From assembly GCA_003695505.1 (NCBI GenBank), contig RFIY01000030.1, positions 1 to 19,800 of the forward strand: a stretch of DNA of 19,800 nt, read 5' to 3'. The DNA comes from J088 sp003695505 [NCBI: Candidatus Dadabacteria bacterium] (GTDB lineage Bacteria > J088). The notes under the pieces were generated by a model. That model did no database searches and had not been told where the DNA came from. It was given only the letters and a program-made list of their open reading frames with translations. Numbering within the stretch: the stretch's first letter is position 1; each line of letters starts with the position of its first letter. This document shows positions 503-13,987 of the stretch, in pieces. Both the position numbers and the translations under genes were made by a program.

Positions 503-688
503 TTACTCGTCATTGTCTTCCGGAGTGGCGGGTGTCTTCGCTGTCAGGTCTTCGTCATCGAACAGGATGCGTTCGGCGGGGGTGTCGAGGTCGTCGAACT
601 GGCCCGTGCGGACCGCCCAGATGAACCAGGCGATGGCGGTTGCGGCCATCAACAGGCCAATCGGTAGCAGAAGGTAAATGGCACTCAC
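503..688 (-). CDS. ccoS: CcoS, cbb3-type cytochrome oxidase maturation protein
   Basis: A 61-residue protein with one N-terminal membrane helix (about residues 4-26) and the short acidic tail typical of CcoS, including the family signature [16 protein letters not shown]. CcoS is needed to insert haem and copper into the CcoN subunit in the inner membrane. The start is GTG, overlapping the ccoI stop in the sequence GTGA, so translation is probably coupled to ccoI. It is the last gene of the cco operon, and repeat DNA follows it. Length and position match the family, so the call is firm. Confidence 0.93.
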
Positions 689-3069
689 GGGTTGCGCCTC
701 CGGAATAGCAACAGCGACGACGTGGTGACGGTGACCGAGCTGAGTGGCATCAGCAGGGCGGCAGCAAGCGGCCCGATGCTGCCGGTGGCTGCAAGTGACA
801 GCCCAATGATGTTGTAAACGATGCTGAGTGCGATGTTGCGCCGAACGGCCGCCATCGTGGCTTTCGCCGTTTCGATAGCCTCGGCAAGTACCGACAGTCC
901 GGGATCCAGAAGGTAACCATCGGCAGCTTCGAGCGCCTGATCGACACTGCCAGCCATGGCAATGCCGGTATGGGCGCCAGCAAGTGCGGCGGCATCATTG
1001 GCACCATCGCCGACCATGCCGACGCGCTCGCCCAGCCGTTTCACCAGGGCGAGCTTTTGTTCGGGAGTGACATTTCCAAAGGCCGTTTCGATGCCGACGG
1101 CTGCGGCGACGCGATCCACGGTCGTCTGGCGGTCGCCGCTGACGATGACGGGTTCAATGCCTCGGGCCACCAGGCGGCGGACGGCGTCTTTTGCGTCCGG
1201 GCGCAGCTCGTCGCGCAGGTCGATGCGGGCAACGACTCGTCCGTCGCATTCGACCCAGATGCTGGTGATGTCCGGGGCTTCGGGCGCGCGAAATGCATCC
1301 GGGATATCCGTGCCGATCCAGCGCGACCCGCCAATCCTCAACGTGTGCCCGGCGACGCGCCCCTGAATACCGAGTCCGGCTTCTTCGTGTACATCTTCGG
1401 CAATGTAGCGACCGCCAGGGATTGTCGCGAATGCCCGTGCGATCGGATGCAGTGAATGCTGTTCGATCGAAGCAACCGCTTCCTTCAGCGAAAGTCCATC
1501 GATCGTTGCGAGGCCCTGCCAGTGAACAATTTGTGGGGTGCCCGTGGTCAGCGTGCCTGTCTTGTCGAATACGATGGTGTCGATGGCAGCGAGGCGCTGC
1601 AGCGCGGCGCCGTGTTTGAGCATCAGGCTGCGGCGGTGGAGCAGTGACTGGCCGATTGCAAGCGCGAGTGGGGTCGCGAGTCCCAGTGCGCACGGGCACA
1701 TGACGACGGCAACCGCAACGGATGCAGCGATGGCGTGGTCGATGCTGTGCGGCCACCACCACAGCAACGTGCCGACAACTGCGATCAAGGTGACTGCGAC
1801 CAGTGCGGTTGCAATGCGGTCGGCGAGGGCCATGATTGGGGCGCGTCCGCGTCCGGCCTCGTGTGCGAGCTGGGCGATCCCGTTGATCCGGGTCTGCTCG
1901 CCCGTGGCCGTCACGCGATAGCGAATCGGCGCGCCCAGGTTGGTCGTGCCGGCGTACACCTGGTCACCGCGCTTGAGTTCGGCCGGTCTCGATTCACCCG
2001 TCAGGACGGCCATGTTGAACCGCCCTTCTTCGCTTTCGAGTTTGCCGTCGGCGACAAGAAGCTGACCGGTATCCGCGTAAAGCAGATCGCCGGCCTGAAG
2101 TTCGGAGACCGGCACGCGATCAATGGCGCCGCTTTCCGGGGCGACGCGCAAGGCTTCGGTGGCAGTTTGCCAGGTGACCTGGCGTGACGTCGTACGGGCG
2201 CGCCTGTGCCCTCGCTCGAGGATCACGCGGCCCGCGAGCAACAAAAATACGAGCGCGGCAATCGAGTCGAAATAGACGTGTTGCTGTCCACGAACGAGCG
2301 CGGCGATGCTTCCGGCGAAGGCGATCAGGATGCCGAGCGAGACCGGGAGGTCGATATGGGGCACACCGCGCCGCAGCGCGCCCAGCGCGCGGCGATGAAA
2401 CGGGGCCGCGCACCAGAAGACGACCGGTAGCGTCAGTGCACCCGCGACCCACAGAAAGAGCTTCGCAAAGTGATCGGAAATGCCACTGAACTGGCCAGCA
2501 TAGAGCGGCACAGTGACCAACATGATGTTGCCCGCCAGGGCGCCAGCGACGCCGGTGCGAAGCCACAAATCACGCGCGGCTTCCTGCTCGGACTGCGTAT
2601 CGTCGCGCGGCAGCCGCAGGCTGTATCCCGCCGATGCAAATGCGTTGGCCAGTGCCGGCAGGTCGGTATCCGCAGGTCGCCAGCGCAGGCGAACCCGGCG
2701 TGCATCCAGCTGGACGTCGATCGATTCGACGCCGCGATGACGTAGCGCGATCTTTTCCAGCAACCAGACACAGGCCGCGCAATGAATTTCGGGGACATCG
2801 AAGGGCATTTCGACGACGGTCTGGCCGGACAGCGCGCAAAGCAGGCCGGCGAGATCTTCGTCTGGCGTGCCACGGCTGCGCAACGGGGAGGGCGCGTCAC
2901 GCACACGATAGTAATCCTCAAGCTGCTCATCGCGCAGAAAATGCCAGACCGCCTCGCACCCGGCGCAACAGAAGATGGGCTCGTCCGTTCTGCTCGTGCC
3001 AAGAACCAGTTGTCCGCAGTGCGCGCAGCGCGTGCCGCCCGAGCTGGATTTGCGAAGCGGATCAGCCAT
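685..3069 (-). CDS. ccoI: CcoI/FixI, copper-exporting P1B-type ATPase for cbb3 oxidase assembly
   Basis: A 794-residue heavy-metal P-type ATPase of the FixI/CcoI branch, which delivers copper for the CuB site of cbb3 oxidase. The N-terminus has an FixI-type cysteine cluster (C15, C18, C34, C35, C38), then an HMA-like domain with HCAAC at 96-100. The actuator motif TGES is at 357-360, the membrane metal site CPC at 458-460, the phosphorylation motif DKTGT at 502-506, an SLHPIA loop at 539-544 and GDGANDA at 687-693. All catalytic motifs are intact. Its start overlaps the ccoH stop by 8 nt. The FixI-type cysteine-rich N-terminus and the neighbours favour CcoI over a detoxifying CopA. Confidence 0.96.
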
Positions 3070-3541
3070 CGTTCCAGAGTTCGGTCGAGATCGTCACCGG
3101 CGTCTGCTTCCAGGTCGCCTCAAGCGTGACGCGCCAGCGCCCGCGCACTGCGGGGGCGGTGACGGGAAGGATCGTAGTCCCGGATACCAGCGCCGGCGTG
3201 CTGAAGTCGAGCTCGGGGCGATCCGGGCGCCAGTAATGCAGAAGTGGATGCTCTGGCGTCACGGGGTTGCCGTATGCAAGTAATGCAACTCCGCCGTCAG
3301 CCGGCTGCAATTGCAGGCCAAGGCGAGCATTTGTTTCACCGGCAGCGATTTCGCGATCGTATGCGAGTCCGTGTTCATAGTAATCCCGCCGGACCAGCGG
3401 GAACGTCACATCGCGTACGAGCCACCACACCGCAAAATTGACGACGACGACCGTGCCGAGGCCCAGTGTGATGCCGATCGCCCAGCGCCGACCGGCACGT
3501 TTCGCTTCTTCGGTTGTTGCGCGGTAGAGCTCGCGCGTCAT
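3062..3541 (-). CDS. ccoH: CcoH/FixH, cbb3 oxidase assembly protein
   Basis: A 159-residue FixH-family protein with one N-terminal membrane helix (about residues 20-42) and a periplasmic domain of beta-strand character. The conserved YYEHGLAYDREI stretch just after the helix is typical of FixH. CcoH is a membrane assembly factor that associates with the cbb3 complex. The ATG overlaps the ccoG stop as ATGA, and its own stop overlaps ccoI, giving the usual order G-H-I-S with tight translational coupling. Confidence 0.93.
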   Translation of the reverse strand: MTRELYRATTEEAKRAGRRWAIGITLGLGTVVVVNFAVWWLVRDVTFPLVRRDYYEHGLAYDREIAAGETNARLGLQLQPADGGVALLAYGNPVTPEHPLLHYWRPDRPELDFSTPALVSGTTILPVTAPAVRGRWRVTLEATWKQTPVTISTELWNDG

Positions 3542-4935
3542 GGCCGGTCATCCGGGAAAATGGCGTCGCCGTTGATGGTGTGCGCTTCGCCGGTTTCCTT
3601 ATTCCGGATTTCGATCGTGAACGGGATCGTACCGTGCAGCTCAGCGGGGCCGACAACGAAAATTTCGGTCGCACGCTCCGCCCCTGCGTCAACGGGTAGC
3701 GGGTTGACCGGCGCAATCAGTCGTAGCGGCTGATCGCTGCGCAGGATGAGCTGCAGGTGGACAGGTTCGGCGTCCTTGTTGATCAGCTTCAGTCGGAAAT
3801 GGTTGGCGATCTCGCGATCGCTGAGCGGTTGCCAGACCGCCCCGGCTGGCCGCAGCAGGGCGACTTCGATCATTGGCCGGTTCACAGCCAGGACGATGAA
3901 AGTCGTCAGCGACGCGAGCATCAGCAAACCATAGATTACCGTGCGTGGGCGGATCGGATGCGCGGGTGCGCCGTCTTCGAGTTCTCGTTCTGATGCATAG
4001 CGGATCAGCCCGCGCGGTTTGCCGATTCCGTCCATCACCGAATCACAGGCGTCGATGCAACGGGCGCAGTGGATGCACTCGAGCTGCAACCCATTGCGAA
4101 TGTCGATCCCTTGCGGGCAGACGACGACACACTTGGTGCAGTCGATACAGTCACCGAAATTCTCGTCGCCTTCTTTCTTGCGTTGGGCCATCTTTGCGCG
4201 CGGTTCACCGCGGTTGGCATCGTAGCCGACGATCAGGCTTTCGCGGTCGAGCAGCGCGGATTGAAACCGTGCGTAAGGACAGATGTAATTGCAAAACTGT
4301 TCGCGCAGCAGCACCAGGTCGGTATAGATCGCAACCGTCATGAACGTCGCAAAAATAATTGGCGCCTTGTATTCCCAGCTCGGATGAAGGATCGCGTAAG
4401 TGAGGCGCCGTACGTCCATGAAGTACGACAGAAAGACGTGCGCCAGCAGGCTTGACAACGCGATGAAGATCAGATGCTTGGTGATCTTGAGGCTCAGCTT
4501 TTTCCAGGTCCAGGGTGCCTGGTCCAGGCGCATTTGCTGGTTGCGATTCCCTTCGAGCCACTGTTCGACCTTGAGGACGACATTGTGCAGAAAAACTGTC
4601 TGCGGGCAGGTATAGCCGCACCAGACCCGACCCCAGAGTGCGGTCACGAACAGGATGCCAACGAAAAAGGCGAACAGCAGAAAGAACAACAACCACACGT
4701 CATGCGGCCAGTACACCTGGCCGAACAGGACGAAGCGGCGGCCGGGAACATCAAAGAGAATCAGAGGCAGTCCGTTGATGCGGATCAGCGGGATTGCCAC
4801 CAGGATCGCGATCAGCACATAACCGAGGACGGTTCGTCCGCGCGTGAACCGTCCCGAAATCTTTTGTGGATAGACCCAGTTGCGTTTGTCAACGTCGGGC
4901 AGGATGCGGTCGAGTTTTTCGAGGGGCACGAACAT
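3538..4935 (-). CDS. ccoG: CcoG (FixG/RdxA), membrane iron-sulfur protein of cbb3 assembly
   Basis: A 465-residue polyferredoxin. Several membrane helices fill the N-terminal half, with the CGYTCPQTVFL motif at about 106-116 and CNYICPYARFQSALLD at about 215-230. Two [4Fe-4S] cysteine sets follow (C263, C266, C269, C273 and C287, C290, C293, C297), then a further helix near 335-353 and a C-terminal IgG-like FixG domain. CcoG family members have been reported to reduce Cu(II) during cbb3 biogenesis. AGGAG lies about 11 nt before the ATG. A strong hairpin separates it from the upstream ccoP, so it is the first gene of the assembly block. Confidence 0.95.
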   Translation of the reverse strand: MFVPLEKLDRILPDVDKRNWVYPQKISGRFTRGRTVLGYVLIAILVAIPLIRINGLPLILFDVPGRRFVLFGQVYWPHDVWLLFFLLFAFFVGILFVTALWGRVWCGYTCPQTVFLHNVVLKVEQWLEGNRNQQMRLDQAPWTWKKLSLKITKHLIFIALSSLLAHVFLSYFMDVRRLTYAILHPSWEYKAPIIFATFMTVAIYTDLVLLREQFCNYICPYARFQSALLDRESLIVGYDANRGEPRAKMAQRKKEGDENFGDCIDCTKCVVVCPQGIDIRNGLQLECIHCARCIDACDSVMDGIGKPRGLIRYASERELEDGAPAHPIRPRTVIYGLLMLASLTTFIVLAVNRPMIEVALLRPAGAVWQPLSDREIANHFRLKLINKDAEPVHLQLILRSDQPLRLIAPVNPLPVDAGAERATEIFVVGPAELHGTIPFTIEIRNKETGEAHTINGDAIFPDDRP

Positions 4936-4956
4936 GGGGGCTGCTCTCCTGAAGAT

Positions 4957-4983
4957 CCGAAGGGGGCCGGCGGCCCCCTTCGG
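4957..4983 (-). other. 12-bp hairpin between ccoP and ccoG
   Basis: CCGAAGGGGGCC (4957-4968) pairs perfectly with GGCCCCCTTCGG (4972-4983) around a 3-nt loop. On the transcript it begins 10 nt after the ccoP stop and ends shortly before the ccoG ribosome-binding site. No U-tract follows, so it is probably not a full terminator. It could protect the 3' end of a ccoNOQP mRNA, be an RNase processing site or act as an attenuator. Role inferred; structure seen directly. Confidence 0.7.
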
Positions 4984-4993
4984 TGGGTGTCAT

Positions 4994-5560
4994 CTACTGT
5001 GCTGGGGGCGTTTCCGGGTGCGCATCTGGATGCGGTGAGCCATCTCCATTTGGTGTGCTTAGTGAATAAACGAAGGCAGCGACCTGATGAATCTTTTCCG
5101 GTCCGAGCATCTTCCAGGGCGGCATGCCCTTGGCAGGGACGCCGTTCGTGACAATATTGATGATCGCCGCCAGGGAGCCATCCCCGTTGCGCCAGGCGTG
5201 ATCGCGCAGGTTGGGCCCGACCAGGCCTTCCGCGGTCGGGCCGTGACAGGATGCACAGGTCGATGCGAAGATCTGCGCACCGGCTTCGCGGGCAGCCGCA
5301 TCGGCGGCCAGAGCCGCAACGTCGAGTGATGGTGCCTGCTGCGCTTGCGCTTCACGCGCTTTCTGAACCTCGGCCATTTCCGCTTCGTAGGCTTGCACCG
5401 GCAAGACGCCCTTGTCAAAGACGTGATACCAGAGCATGTACGGCAAGGCGAAGCAGACGGTACCTACGAAAATCAGATTCAGCCAAAGTGGAATCGGGTT
5501 GTCGTATTCCTGGATCCCGTCGAACTGATGGTCTTTCAATCTGTCTTTTTCAGGCGCCAT
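4994..5560 (-). CDS. ccoP: CcoP, cytochrome c subunit of cbb3 oxidase (one haem only)
   Basis: A 188-residue membrane-anchored cytochrome c. The N-terminus carries the CcoP hallmark DGIQEYDNPIPLWW-like segment (here DGIQEYDNPIPLWLN, residues 14-28), then one membrane helix and an alanine/glutamine-rich linker. There is one class I cytochrome c domain, with CASCH at 102-106 and a probable axial Met146. Typical CcoP has two CxxCH motifs and about 300 residues, so one haem domain is missing. The start at 5560 is chosen because AAGGAG lies about 7 nt upstream. A start 30 nt further upstream (5590) is possible but poorer. It overlaps the ccoQ end by 11 nt. Confidence 0.92.
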   Translation of the reverse strand: MAPEKDRLKDHQFDGIQEYDNPIPLWLNLIFVGTVCFALPYMLWYHVFDKGVLPVQAYEAEMAEVQKAREAQAQQAPSLDVAALAADAAAREAGAQIFASTCASCHGPTAEGLVGPNLRDHAWRNGDGSLAAIINIVTNGVPAKGMPPWKMLGPEKIHQVAAFVYSLSTPNGDGSPHPDAHPETPPAQ

Positions 5561-5744
5561 GGGGGGCTCCTTCCGTGTCATCTTTTTCATCGTCGAGCGG
5601 CAGGTACTTCAGCGCTTCCAGCTCGTCGCGGCGACCGCGACGCCACGTCCATATGGCCGTCAGGATGAAGGCCACAATGAACAGAATCAGCGCCAGTTGC
5701 TGCCAGAATACGGTGTCGCCTTGCGCGAGTACTTCCCGGATCAT
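5550..5744 (-). CDS. ccoQ: CcoQ, small subunit of cbb3 oxidase
   Basis: A 64-residue single-helix membrane protein. The helix is about residues 14-34 and is followed by the basic WRRGRRDE segment and the conserved LKYLPLDDE motif of CcoQ/FixQ. CcoQ stabilises the association of CcoP with the CcoNO core. The ATG overlaps the ccoNO stop as ATGA, and the ccoP ribosome-binding site and start lie inside its last codons. Size and position match the family. Confidence 0.9.
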   Translation of the reverse strand: MIREVLAQGDTVFWQQLALILFIVAFILTAIWTWRRGRRDELEALKYLPLDDEKDDTEGAPHGA

Positions 5745-7849
5745 GGATTTTGCCTCCAGTTGATGTCCGTGCCCAGCCGTTGCAGGTAGGCAATCAGCGC
5801 CAGGATTTCACTATCGCTCGGGACGTCACCCGCGCCAGCGGCTTCCAGGCCCTGCTCGATTTTCGCGGCCTGTTGCTTCGCCAGCGAAACGGCGTCGCGA
5901 ACTTCGTCGTCGCTGTAGGGTACGCCCAGGGCTTTCATTGCAGCGACAGAGCTGGCCAGTACGTCGTAGTCGATCGGCTTCTTGGTCAGGAAACTGTACG
6001 GTGGCATGATCGACCCCGGCGAGGTTGATCGTGGATCGACCAGGTGGCGATAGTGCCAGAGGTCGGGGTACTTGCCGCCGACGCGGTGCAGATCTGGTCC
6101 GATCCGGCGACTTCCCCACTGGAACGGATGGTCATAGACGAATTCACCGGCTTTGCTGTATTCGCCATAGCGTTCGGTTTCGTGGCGGAAGGGGCGAACC
6201 ATCTGTGAATGGCAGACGTAGCAGCCTTCGCCGATGTAGAGCGTCCGGCCGTGCAGTTCGAGTGGGGTGTATGGTTCGACTTTCGCCAGTTTCGGCAGTT
6301 CGAATTCGGCCTTGAGGATTGGAACCAGTTCGAACAGGGTACCGACGAGGATGACGACCAGTGCGACACTGGTGAATACGAACGGACGGGCTTCGATCCA
6401 GCCGTGGCCAGCTTCACTGTGTGCGCCCTCATTTTCGGCAACCGTGATCCCTTCAACCGCCGGACCTTCGCTTTGTCCGATCGTCTTGAGCAGATTCCAG
6501 ATCATCAGAATGACGCCACTGAGAAACAGCAGCCCGCCGAAGAAGCGGATGTAGTACATCGGCAGAATCTTGATGACCGTTTCCATGAAGTTCGGGTAGC
6601 GCAGCAGCCCGTCGGGCGTAAAGGCGCGCCACATCAGGCCCTGGGTCACGCCAGCGATCCACATCGAAATGACATAGATGATGATGCCGAGCGTGCCAAT
6701 CCAGAAATGGACTTCCGCGGCGCGGGTGCTGTAGAGCTTCGTGTTCCAGAGGCGCGGTACCAGGTAATAGAACATGCCGAAGATCAGGAACGCGACCCAG
6801 CCGAGCGCGCCGGAGTGCACGTGCCCGATCGTCCAGTCGGTGTAGTGGCTGAGCGAATTGACCGACTTGATGCTCATCATCGGCCCTTCGAAGGTACTCA
6901 TACCGTAGAAGGTCACAGCGACGACCATGAACTTCAGCACCGGATCCTTCCGAAGCTTGTCAAAGGCCCCGCGCAGGGTATACAAACCGTTGATCATGCC
7001 GCCCCAGCTCGGTGCCCACAACATGACGCTGAAGACCATGCCGAGCGACTGCGCCCAGTCCGGCAGCGCCGTGTAGTGCAGGTGGTGCGGACCGGCCCAG
7101 ATGTACAAGAAGACCAGCGCCCAGAAGTGCAAGATGCTGAGGCGGTAACTGAACACCGGGCGGCCGGCGGCCTTGGGCAGGTAATAGTACATCAGCCCAA
7201 GGAATGGCGTGGTCAACAGGAAACCGACGGCATTATGGCCATACCACCACTGCACCATGGCGTCCTGCACGCCGGGATAGATCGAAAAGCTGTGCAGCAG
7301 CCCGGCCGGCATCGCGAGGTTATTGACGATGTGCAGTACGGCAATCGTCACGATCGTCGCAATGTAGAACCAGATCGCGACATAAATATGCTTGATGCGA
7401 CGGATGGCGATCATCCAGAAGACATTGACCGCAAAGACGACCCAGATCAGCGTGATCAGGATGTCAAGGATCCAGCCGGGTTCCGCATATTCCTTGCCCT
7501 GGCTGTGACCGGTGGCGAGATAGAGCACGTCGAGGACGACGATCAGTTGCCAGCCCCAGAAATGCAGACTGGCCAGCTTGTCGCTGGGTAGCCGCACTTT
7601 GAGCAGGCGCTGCATCGAATGGTAGGTGCCGGCAAAGATCGCATTCGCGGCGAACGCGAAAATCACACCGTTTGTGTGAATTGGGCGCAGCCGACCGAAC
7701 GTGATGTATTCAATGCCGCCATTGAGTTGCCACCAGGCGAGTTCACCGGCGATGTACAATCCGGCGAGCATCCCGATCAGCCCCCAGATCACACTTGCGC
7801 CGATGAACTGGCGGACGACCCGATCGTTGTAGGTGATCGTCTCGGTCAT
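5741..7849 (-). CDS. ccoNO: CcoNO, fused catalytic (CcoN) and mono-haem cytochrome c (CcoO) subunits of cbb3 oxidase
   Basis: One 702-residue frame holds both subunits. Residues 1 to about 460 are CcoN, the 12-helix haem-copper oxidase core that reduces oxygen to water. Expected ligands are present: H58 and H345 (haem b), H205, H255 and H256 (CuB), Y249 (likely cross-linked tyrosine) and H343 (haem b3). A linker at about 458-485 leads to CcoO, with a membrane helix (about 490-510), CYVCH at 543-547 and Met615 in GSIMPPY. The two subunits are usually separate genes. The fusion point shows no stop or frame change. GAGGAGG lies 7 nt before the ATG. It is the first gene of the cco operon. Confidence 0.95.
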   Translation of the reverse strand: MTETITYNDRVVRQFIGASVIWGLIGMLAGLYIAGELAWWQLNGGIEYITFGRLRPIHTNGVIFAFAANAIFAGTYHSMQRLLKVRLPSDKLASLHFWGWQLIVVLDVLYLATGHSQGKEYAEPGWILDILITLIWVVFAVNVFWMIAIRRIKHIYVAIWFYIATIVTIAVLHIVNNLAMPAGLLHSFSIYPGVQDAMVQWWYGHNAVGFLLTTPFLGLMYYYLPKAAGRPVFSYRLSILHFWALVFLYIWAGPHHLHYTALPDWAQSLGMVFSVMLWAPSWGGMINGLYTLRGAFDKLRKDPVLKFMVVAVTFYGMSTFEGPMMSIKSVNSLSHYTDWTIGHVHSGALGWVAFLIFGMFYYLVPRLWNTKLYSTRAAEVHFWIGTLGIIIYVISMWIAGVTQGLMWRAFTPDGLLRYPNFMETVIKILPMYYIRFFGGLLFLSGVILMIWNLLKTIGQSEGPAVEGITVAENEGAHSEAGHGWIEARPFVFTSVALVVILVGTLFELVPILKAEFELPKLAKVEPYTPLELHGRTLYIGEGCYVCHSQMVRPFRHETERYGEYSKAGEFVYDHPFQWGSRRIGPDLHRVGGKYPDLWHYRHLVDPRSTSPGSIMPPYSFLTKKPIDYDVLASSVAAMKALGVPYSDDEVRDAVSLAKQQAAKIEQGLEAAGAGDVPSDSEILALIAYLQRLGTDINWRQNP

Positions 7850-7904
7850 ATGCGGTCCTCCTCAGCAGGTTCCGGTCGTGAAATTGTCAGAAGACAGGTG
7901 AATC

Positions 7905-7953
7905 TTGGTTCATTCTAACGATCATTTTGCGTGCGGAACTTGATCTGGATCAA
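7905..7953 (-). promoter_or_regulatory. FNR/ANR-type promoter of the cco operon
   Basis: TTGATCTGGATCAA (7940-7953) matches the FNR/ANR consensus TTGAT-N4-ATCAA exactly. Reading leftwards, TAGAAT (complement of 7912-7917) matches the -10 consensus at five of six positions. Its spacing puts a start near 7905, with the box centred close to -41.5, as in class II FNR-activated promoters. The leader to ccoNO would be about 56 nt. The box is seen directly; the start site is inferred. Confidence 0.85.
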
Positions 7954-7987
7954 ATTTTGAAGCCGTTTTGTGCATATCATGTAACGA
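7940..7987 (+). promoter_or_regulatory. Divergent FNR/ANR-type promoter for the TauE/SafE-like gene
   Basis: The same box (7940-7953) has a second well-placed -10 element on its right: TATCAT at 7975-7980, five of six matches. This predicts a rightward start near 7987, again with the box near -41.5. A small inverted repeat, ATATC/GATAT (7974-7990), overlaps this -10 element. One symmetric box could therefore activate both directions. Confidence 0.65.
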
Positions 7988-8020
7988 TATCTCCCCCCGC
8001 CAATGGTCGAAGTGTGCCCG

Positions 8021-8734
8021 ATGAATGCATCTGTCCTGCTGATTGCCGCCGCAACAGCCTTTTCCGTGGGCGTGTTGTCCGGCACGGGGCACTGTACCGC
8101 AATGTGTGGCGGGCTGCTGCTTGCGATGAAGCGGTCGAGCCGTGGCCGTACCTGGGCGTTGCACCTTGGCCGCGTGATGACCTACACCTGGCTGGCCGTG
8201 GCACTTGCGCTGGGACAGGGGTGGGTCGGGCAGCAGCAATGGATGATCGTACGCCGCGTCGTGCTCGGCTCGCTCGGCCTGGCGTTGATCGTGATTGGTA
8301 TGGAGGTGCTATTGCGGCGTCGGCTGCGCGTCGGCTGGCTGGAACGTGCCACGCGCGCGGTGGGGCGTGGTATGCGAGCGGTCAGCGGTAGCGGGATCGC
8401 GGGCGCGTGGCTGGCTGGTATGCTCTGGGGACTGATTCCCTGCGGCTTCAGTTGGGCGGCGATTCTCGGCGCGGCCACGCGGCCACCGGCTGAGGCCGTG
8501 TTGGTCATTGCCGCGTTCGGCCTGGGTACCATTGTCCCGCTGACCGGGCTGGCCTGGATCGATGGGCGTCTGTCATTGCGACAACGTGCCCGCTGGACAC
8601 AGGTCGTTGCCGTGTTGCTCGTCGCGTACGGCGCGTGGATGTCGGCGCGGGCAATCGGTGGCATGCCGCAGCATGCTCATGGAAAGGAAGCGTCTGCGAT
8701 GCACGCGCCAGACATCACCAGGGGGACGCGATAG
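8021..8734 (+). CDS. TauE/SafE (DsbD_2-type) membrane protein, possible metal-handling partner of cbb3 oxidase
   Basis: A 237-residue polytopic protein with about six membrane helices. It carries GHCTAMCGG near residues 23-31 and GLIPCGFSWAAILGAA in the second half, the paired cysteine motifs typical of proteins annotated as 'sulfite exporter TauE/SafE' or DsbD_2. Relatives often sit beside cco genes and are suspected to move copper or reducing power. Substrate not known. The tail contains HAHGKEASAMHAP, with histidine and methionine residues that could bind metal. I chose ATG 8021 over ATG 8003 because 8003 has only C-rich sequence before it. Shared FNR control with ccoNO supports a link to the oxidase. 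Confidence 0.8.
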   Translation: MNASVLLIAAATAFSVGVLSGTGHCTAMCGGLLLAMKRSSRGRTWALHLGRVMTYTWLAVALALGQGWVGQQQWMIVRRVVLGSLGLALIVIGMEVLLRRRLRVGWLERATRAVGRGMRAVSGSGIAGAWLAGMLWGLIPCGFSWAAILGAATRPPAEAVLVIAAFGLGTIVPLTGLAWIDGRLSLRQRARWTQVVAVLLVAYGAWMSARAIGGMPQHAHGKEASAMHAPDITRGTR

Positions 8735-13772: not shown

Positions 13773-13821
13773 GTACCTCAATATGCCAAAGCGCCGCAAC
13801 CGAAAAATTGATCCAGGTCAA
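13773..13821 (-). promoter_or_regulatory. FNR/DNR-type promoter of the small membrane protein gene
   Basis: TTGATCCAGGTCAA (13808-13821) fits TTGAT-N4-GTCAA, the form often given for DNR/NNR sites, and is one base from the FNR consensus. On the minus strand CATATT (complement of 13780-13785) sits at the distance expected of a -10 element for a class II site, giving a start near 13773. No matching -10 is visible to the right, so this box probably serves only the leftward gene. Confidence 0.75.
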
Positions 13822-13938: not shown

Positions 13939-13987
13939 TTGATTCCGATCAATTTTTTTGTGCCAATCGCCGGATTCAATGTAAAGC
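13939..13987 (+). promoter_or_regulatory. FNR/DNR-type promoter of the porin-nirS operon
   Basis: TTGATTCCGATCAA (13939-13952) is an exact FNR/ANR consensus. TTCAAT (13975-13980) matches the -10 hexamer at four of six positions and predicts a start near 13987, with the box centred near -41.5. The leader to the ATG at 14030 would be about 43 nt. This is the only clear promoter seen before nirS. Confidence 0.85.

What the first reader, a model, noticed from the sequence alone, without database searches (positions are those of the whole stretch)
7905..7987. One symmetric FNR box with a matching -10 on each side
TTGATCTGGATCAA is a perfect, self-complementary FNR/ANR site apart from its spacer. 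TAGAAT on the left and TATCAT on the right each match -10 at five of six positions, with inner edges 29-30 bp from the box centre. This predicts that one bound dimer activates both ccoNOQP and the TauE/SafE-like gene, possibly in competition.
Basis: partly seen in the sequence, partly recalled or inferred. Interest (0 to 1): 0.6.

Follow-up and report, generated by a model that had tools for sequence, protein, structure and literature searches.

The report
One oxygen-sensor site, two opposite promoters
A single binding site for an oxygen-responsive type of regulator sits midway between two back-to-back genes, each with a promoter element at about the standard distance, so one bound protein probably switches on both; the design is neat but already known from another bacterium.

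Summary
TTGATCTGGATCAA lies at 7940-7953 (centre 7946.5). TAGAAT (minus strand, 7917-7912) and TATCAT (plus strand, 7975-7980) each match -10 at 5 of 6 positions. They begin 29.5 and 28.5 bp from the centre, so the right distance is slightly less than stated. Shuffled flanks give such a -10 on both sides in 5e-5 of trials. Neither side has a -35 better than 2 of 6.

The genome supports the geometry. It holds 15 perfect boxes, about 0.45 expected. TAnnnT lies 28.5-30.5 bp from the centre on 12 of 30 sides, against a mean of 0.1 sides per offset elsewhere. A second box, beside hemN, also has a -10 on both sides.

Best reading: one FNR/ANR/DNR-type dimer activates ccoNO-Q-P-G-H-I-S leftward (-41.5) and a DsbD_2 gene rightward (-40.5) as back-to-back class II promoters. 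In 10 of 80 distant relatives that DsbD_2 gene lies downstream of ccoNO on the same strand. The mechanism has precedent: one FnrL/Dnr site in Dinoroseobacter shibae serves nirS (-39.5) and nosR2 (-41.5). It is a new member of a known kind. Transcription, regulator identity, conservation and competition are untested.

The parts
7940..7953 (.). FNR/ANR/DNR-type box TTGATCTGGATCAA, centre 7946.5
   Evidence: perfect TTGAT-N4-ATCAA; one of 15 in the genome, about 0.45 expected
7912..7917 (-). -10 element TAGAAT of the leftward cco promoter; first base 29.5 bp from the box centre
   Evidence: no -35 better than 2 of 6
7975..7980 (+). -10 element TATCAT of the rightward promoter; first base 28.5 bp from the box centre
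   Evidence: no -35 better than 2 of 6
7905..7905 (-). predicted leftward transcript start, about 7 nt after the -10; box at -41.5
   Evidence: inference from -10 position; not mapped
7987..7987 (+). predicted rightward transcript start, about 7 nt after the -10; box at -40.5
   Evidence: inference from -10 position; not mapped
5741..7849 (-). ccoNO, fused cbb3 oxidase subunits I and II; leader carries GAGGAGGA before the ATG
503..5744 (-). rest of the leftward cluster: ccoQ (Pfam FixQ just below cut-off), ccoP, ccoG, a small gene at the ccoH position, a copper-type P-ATPase (ccoI), ccoS
   Evidence: the ccoH name is by position only (no NCBIfam match; not run against Pfam)
8021..8734 (+). DsbD_2 membrane protein gene (start 8021 preferred; ATG at 8003 also possible)
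   Evidence: PF13386 E 3.9e-33; leader shows no strong ribosome site before either ATG, judged by eye

Best explanation
The box at 7940-7953 is bound by a dimer of an FNR-family regulator, most likely when oxygen is low. Each subunit of the symmetric dimer faces one promoter. On the left it sits at -41.5 and recruits RNA polymerase to TAGAAT for the ccoNO-Q-P-G-H-I-S cluster. On the right it sits at -40.5 and recruits polymerase to TATCAT for the DsbD_2 gene. Both are class II, activator-dependent promoters without a good -35. Shown here: the sequence parts, the distances, and their agreement with the rest of the genome. Inferred: binding, transcription, low-oxygen control, and the idea that two polymerases (predicted starts about 82 bp apart, both reaching over the same box) cannot sit there at once.
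For: Box and both -10s are present and unlikely by chance. Across the 15 perfect boxes, TAnnnT at 28.5-30.5 bp occurs on 12 of 30 sides (1, 7 and 4 by offset), against a mean of 0.10 sides per offset at 59 other offsets (Fisher p 1e-12). By my hand classing, made after seeing the hits, these 12 are among 19 sides that face a gene start, with 0 of 9 non-facing sides and 0 of 2 unclear (p 0.0017). Both sides: 2 of 15 sites, and 0 in every three-offset window that starts more than 2 bp away. No sigma-70 promoter pair in 7840-8040. Several other perfect boxes precede typical low-oxygen genes: hemN, napD, PFOR, the porin-nirS genes. The DsbD_2 gene keeps company with cco genes: in 10 of 80 distant ccoNO loci it lies downstream on the same strand (nine of them again). 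FNR-activated E. coli promoters exist at both -40.5 and -41.5 (PMC3688515 Table 1, passage).
Against: No transcript data. The right -10 at 28.5 bp is the only TAnnnT at that offset among the 30 sides; the norm is 29.5-30.5. Seven of 19 gene-facing sides lack TAnnnT there, and four other divergent-looking boxes (L003, L006, L008, window 13939) have it on at most one side, so a shared box is not the rule. Some perfect boxes precede genes with no evident oxygen link (P450, CBS-domain, PEP synthase, genes without Pfam match) and one (L007 4646) lies inside the P450 gene. Twenty hand-chosen one-mismatch boxes gave TAnnnT on 3 of 40 sides, a higher background than 0.1 per offset suggests, though at least one may be real. 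The right gene lacks an obvious ribosome site. No complete FNR with the cysteine cluster was found: L121 has CRFCPGRHEC but is cut off at a contig end, and the complete L013 protein has the SRETVSR helix but no N-terminal cysteines. None of 10 plasmid ccoN regions showed a -10 on both sides. Conservation in close relatives could not be tested.
Confidence: 0.74

Rival explanations
1. The box serves only the cco cluster; TATCAT on the right is a chance match and DsbD_2 is expressed by another, unseen promoter or at a low constant level.
For: The right spacing (28.5) is off the genome norm; a single side matches by chance at 1.3%, and one-mismatch boxes gave TAnnnT on 3 of 40 sides; four other divergent-looking boxes have a -10 on one side at most (L003, L006, L008, window 13939).
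Against: 0 of 9 non-facing sides of perfect boxes carry TAnnnT at this distance (hand classing); no alternative promoter in the gap by the scan; the gene is a cco-cluster neighbour elsewhere; -40.5 is a working FNR position in E. coli.
Confidence: 0.16
2. Same architecture, but the activator is a DNR/NNR-type nitric oxide sensor or another CRP-family protein that reads TTGAT-N4-ATCAA, so the pair answers to denitrification rather than to oxygen itself. (This overlaps with the best explanation in everything but the signal.)
For: The only complete CRP-family protein with an E..SR recognition helix that I found in the assembly (L013) has no N-terminal cysteines; porin-nirS genes with their own boxes are in the same window; in D. 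shibae DnrD is the main regulator at the shared nirS/nosR2 site.
Against: Targets such as hemN, PFOR and cco are typical oxygen-FNR targets (recalled); a truncated protein with an FNR-like cysteine spacing exists (L121); L013's best NCBIfam match is CRP at 125.9 bits, below its cut-off of 266; its best PDB matches are CRP/FNR-family regulators and CRP, with DNR lower.
Confidence: 0.25
3. The bound dimer activates one side and represses the other by blocking it, as FNR does at the E. coli nrf/acsP1 pair.
For: FNR binding at pnrf represses the divergent acsP1 promoter (PMC5434802, passage); in the 2026 E. coli study, activation in one direction tends to reduce the other at promoters sharing one -10 (PMC12825309, passages).
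Against: Both -10s sit at activating distance, outside the box rather than under it; the D. shibae nirS/nosR2 pair with nearly the same geometry is active in both directions.
Confidence: 0.07

Closest known systems
Dinoroseobacter shibae nirS/nosR2 and hemA3/dnrE single FnrL/Dnr sites (PMC5398030; sections 22 and 23 read)
   Same: One FNR-type palindrome between divergent genes, at -39.5 of nirS and -41.5 of nosR2, and at -41.5 of hemA3 and -39.5 of dnrE; for nirS/nosR2 both directions were active in lacZ fusions and fell in regulator mutants
   Different: Different genes; box TTAAC-N4-GTCAA; starts taken from RNA sequencing there, only predicted here (-41.5/-40.5); their site mutation was tested on the nirS side only
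Single CRP site activating divergent promoters, El-Robh and Busby 2002 (title only, from the reference list of PMC5434802; paper not held)
   Same: One dimer of the same protein superfamily serving two opposite promoters (title)
   Different: CRP in E. coli; content not read
Sphingopyxis granuli ccoN/ompW (PMC7713065, passages)
   Same: Fnr box at -41.5 of ccoN, which the authors suggest could also serve the divergent gene
   Different: Divergent gene is ompW; sharing is their suggestion, not shown
Rhodobacter capsulatus ccoN/uspA (PMC4634722, passages)
   Same: FnrL site upstream of ccoN, with a divergent FnrL-activated neighbour
   Different: Divergent gene is uspA; the passages seen do not show that one dimer activates both
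Bidirectional promoters of E. coli (PMC12825309, passages)
   Same: Back-to-back transcription with possible polymerase competition
   Different: Those share one -10; here the two -10s have 57 bp between them with an activator site in the middle

Membership tests
FNR-type class II activated promoter (cco side) | Site centred near -41.5, with a -10 about 29.5 bp from the centre | tested here: met
   29.5 bp; the start itself is predicted only
FNR-type class II activated promoter (DsbD_2 side) | Site centred at about -41.5 (+/-4 nt in E. coli, PMC3688515) | tested here: met
   28.5 bp, predicted -40.5; E. coli examples at -40.5; the start itself is predicted only
FNR-type class II activated promoter | No good -35, so activator needed | tested here: met
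   Best -35 2 of 6 on both sides; no promoter in scan
FNR-type class II activated promoter | Transcript depends on the regulator and on low oxygen | not testable with these tools
   needs RNA or reporters
FNR regulon (iron-sulphur FNR) | Genome encodes an FNR with N-terminal cysteine cluster and E..SR helix | tested here: inconclusive
   L121 has the cysteine spacing but is cut before the helix; L013 has the helix without the cysteines; assembly 84.5% complete
Shared single-site divergent FNR/Dnr promoter pair (D. shibae type) | One box at about -40 of both starts | tested here: met
   Sequence geometry only
Shared single-site divergent FNR/Dnr promoter pair (D. shibae type) | Both directions active and lost when the box is mutated | not testable with these tools
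   needs reporters
TauE/SafE family | Match to a TauE model above cut-off | tested here: not met
   At E up to 0.001 only PF13386 DsbD_2 matched in Pfam

The most novel reading that the evidence does not exclude
In this lineage the two-sided class II box is a recurrent device for cbb3 oxidase supply: one box ties oxidase genes to a membrane maturation factor, another ties hemN to a CopD-like membrane unit. If two polymerases do not fit at once, the box would act as a switch that shares out initiation and fixes the ratio of enzyme to maturation factor.
Probability: 0.12. Interest if true: 0.5.

Novelty: new member of a known kind. Interest (0 to 1): 0.35.

Why it matters
It gives a clear, testable case of one activator dimer feeding two opposite class II promoters, with a second candidate in the same genome for comparison. 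It also suggests how a cco-linked gene that sits downstream in the cluster in some distant relatives can be divergent here and still lie under the same regulator. It would let one measure whether the two polymerases compete.

Tried and rejected
A search for relatives that keep the arrangement failed. The DsbD_2 protein found no relative in genome contigs by the tool's peptide patterns. Family, order and class searches each searched one genome, the window's own. Among 51 'relatives', all others only 'same domain', 6 including the own genome had a match, the best other at 35%. Of the five resulting loci, three again gave a DsbD_2 match, one (L104) a ccoI-type ATPase match, and none a ccoNO match within their about 3.6 kb.

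Among the 80 distant ccoNO loci kept of 594 found (best 63%), 4 had a TTGA-N6-TCAA site within 400 bp upstream, where that much was held. One, L091, has a perfect box; I looked at its flank by eye only and saw no clear -10 at the right distance. Of 10 plasmid ccoN regions fetched out of 60 listed and 457 found, 6 had a box by a looser rule (two boxes in one of them) and none had a -10 on both sides. All ten are alphaproteobacteria, where -10s may differ, so this says little.

One-mismatch boxes were used as a rough background: of 68 in the genome, 35 were listed; I fetched 20, chosen by hand. TAnnnT at 28.5-30.5 was on 3 of 40 sides, one of which (L125, TACAAT) may be real.

Paper searches for a link between TauE/DsbD_2 genes and cbb3 oxidase gave no title that I judged useful (listings only).

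Full report
What is there. The gap between two back-to-back genes (7850-8020) holds one perfect FNR-type palindrome, TTGATCTGGATCAA at 7940-7953. To the left, on the minus strand, lies a cbb3 oxidase cluster that begins with a fused ccoNO gene (NCBIfam bifunctional subunit I/II model above cut-off), then ccoQ (Pfam FixQ just below cut-off), ccoP, ccoG, a small gene at the ccoH position, a copper-type P-ATPase at the ccoI position and ccoS. To the right lies a membrane protein gene matching DsbD_2 (PF13386, E 3.9e-33), followed by a thioredoxin-like DUF255/DsbD_N protein.

Geometry. TAGAAT begins 29.5 bp from the box centre on the left and TATCAT 28.5 bp on the right. With a start about 7 nt past each -10 the box sits at -41.5 for the cco promoter and -40.5 for the rightward one, with about 82 bp between starts (inference). 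Neither has a -35 better than 2 of 6, and a promoter scan of 7840-8040 found none. The left leader carries GAGGAGGA before the ATG; the right leader has, by eye, no strong ribosome site before 8003 or 8021.

Chance. Shuffling each flank separately 20,000 times gave a >=5/6 hexamer at 28.5-30.5 bp in 1.3% of trials on either side and 5e-5 on both.

The genome as its own control. The assembly (2.83 Mb, 395 contigs, 84.5% complete) has 15 perfect boxes, 0 matches to the reversed pattern and about 0.45 expected from composition. The flanks of all 15 were scored. TAnnnT starts at 28.5, 29.5 or 30.5 bp on 1, 7 and 4 of 30 sides; at 59 other offsets the mean is 0.10 sides. I classed sides by hand from open reading frames and Pfam; some frames had no Pfam match. 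12 of 19 gene-facing sides, 0 of 9 non-facing and 0 of 2 unclear have the element (test). The classing was done after I had seen the hits, so that p value (0.0017) is indicative; the offset test needs no classing. Two of 15 sites have it on both sides, and no three-offset window starting more than 2 bp away gives even one such site. Against this, 20 one-mismatch boxes chosen by hand gave TAnnnT on 3 of 40 sides, and one perfect box lies inside a gene (L007 4646).

The second two-sided site. L009 (contig C286, 2735-2748) has TATGCT rightward and TATACT leftward, both at 29.5 bp. Rightward is hemN (NCBIfam TIGR00538). Leftward is a 36-codon frame for a small membrane-like peptide starting at 2660, then a DUF4149/CopD-like gene.

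Contrast in the same window. Upstream of the porin-nirS genes there are two boxes: 13939-13952 (perfect, TTCAAT 29.5 bp rightward) and 13808-13821 (one mismatch, CATATT 29.5 bp leftward). So this genome also seems to use separate boxes in one gap.

Why DsbD_2 belongs. In 10 of 80 distant ccoNO loci a DsbD_2 relative (21-29% identical) lies downstream of ccoNO on the same strand. Nine appear again; in seven of those nine the order ccoI-ccoS-ccoNO-ccoP-ccoG-DsbD_2 is complete. Loci end at most 3 kb past ccoNO, so misses may be cut off. Here the gene is divergent instead, yet still next to the box.

The regulator. 21 cNMP-binding matches occur in the assembly. One complete protein, L013, has a CRP-type helix SRETVSR with E..SR spacing but no N-terminal cysteines; its best NCBIfam match is CRP, below cut-off. 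L121 starts with CRFCPGRHEC, the FNR-like C-x2-C-x5-C spacing (recalled), but runs off its contig before the helix. The activator is therefore not fixed: FNR, or a DNR-like sensor.

What is known. E. coli FNR activates at -40.5 (ynfE, pykA, nikA, focA-pflB, yfiD) and at -41.5 (PMC3688515 Table 1, passage). In D. shibae one FnrL/Dnr site lies at -39.5 of nirS and -41.5 of nosR2; both directions were active in lacZ fusions and fell in regulator mutants, and the site mutation was tested on the nirS side. hemA3/dnrE has the same layout (PMC5398030 sections 22-23). A shared Fnr site at ccoN was suggested for ompW in Sphingopyxis (PMC7713065, passages). So the mechanism is known and this is a new member. 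In the listings and passages from my searches I saw no report of a ccoN/DsbD_2 pair sharing a box, but these were few, open-access only, and most listed papers were not opened.

Open points. Transcription and oxygen response are untested. The competition idea is inference: each polymerase would reach over the same box. Published competition that I saw concerns promoters that share a -10 (PMC12825309, passages), a different layout. Conservation in close relatives could not be examined.

Noticed in passing
L009 (own genome C286) 2735-2748: Second perfect box with a -10 on both sides at 29.5 bp: hemN rightward, a 36-codon small membrane-like frame plus DUF4149/CopD-like gene leftward.
   Followed up: partly
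window 13808-13821 and 13939-13952: Two FNR-type boxes between a small leftward frame and the porin-nirS genes, each with its own weak -10 at 29.5 bp.
   Followed up: partly
window 5741-7849: ccoN and ccoO are one fused gene; the 80 best held relatives (56-63% in the best segment) are mostly Bacteroidetes, Bdellovibrio-like, Myxococcota and similar genomes, the top one SAR324.
   Followed up: partly
whole genome G000: Searches by family, order and class returned only this genome, so the lineage is isolated or unplaced in the held set.
   Followed up: no
L121 (own genome C377, contig end): Regulator fragment with CRFCPGRHEC cysteine spacing, cut off before its DNA-binding helix; candidate FNR.
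   Followed up: partly
own genome: 21 cyclic-nucleotide-binding domain matches, some as pairs in one frame; seems many for 2.8 Mb (impression, not tested).
   Followed up: no
L011 5394; L006 4018; L003 1843; L008 858: Other perfect boxes lie before napD, PFOR, a pyridine-nucleotide oxidoreductase beside an Rrf2 regulator, and between a ferritin and a gene without Pfam match.
   Followed up: partly
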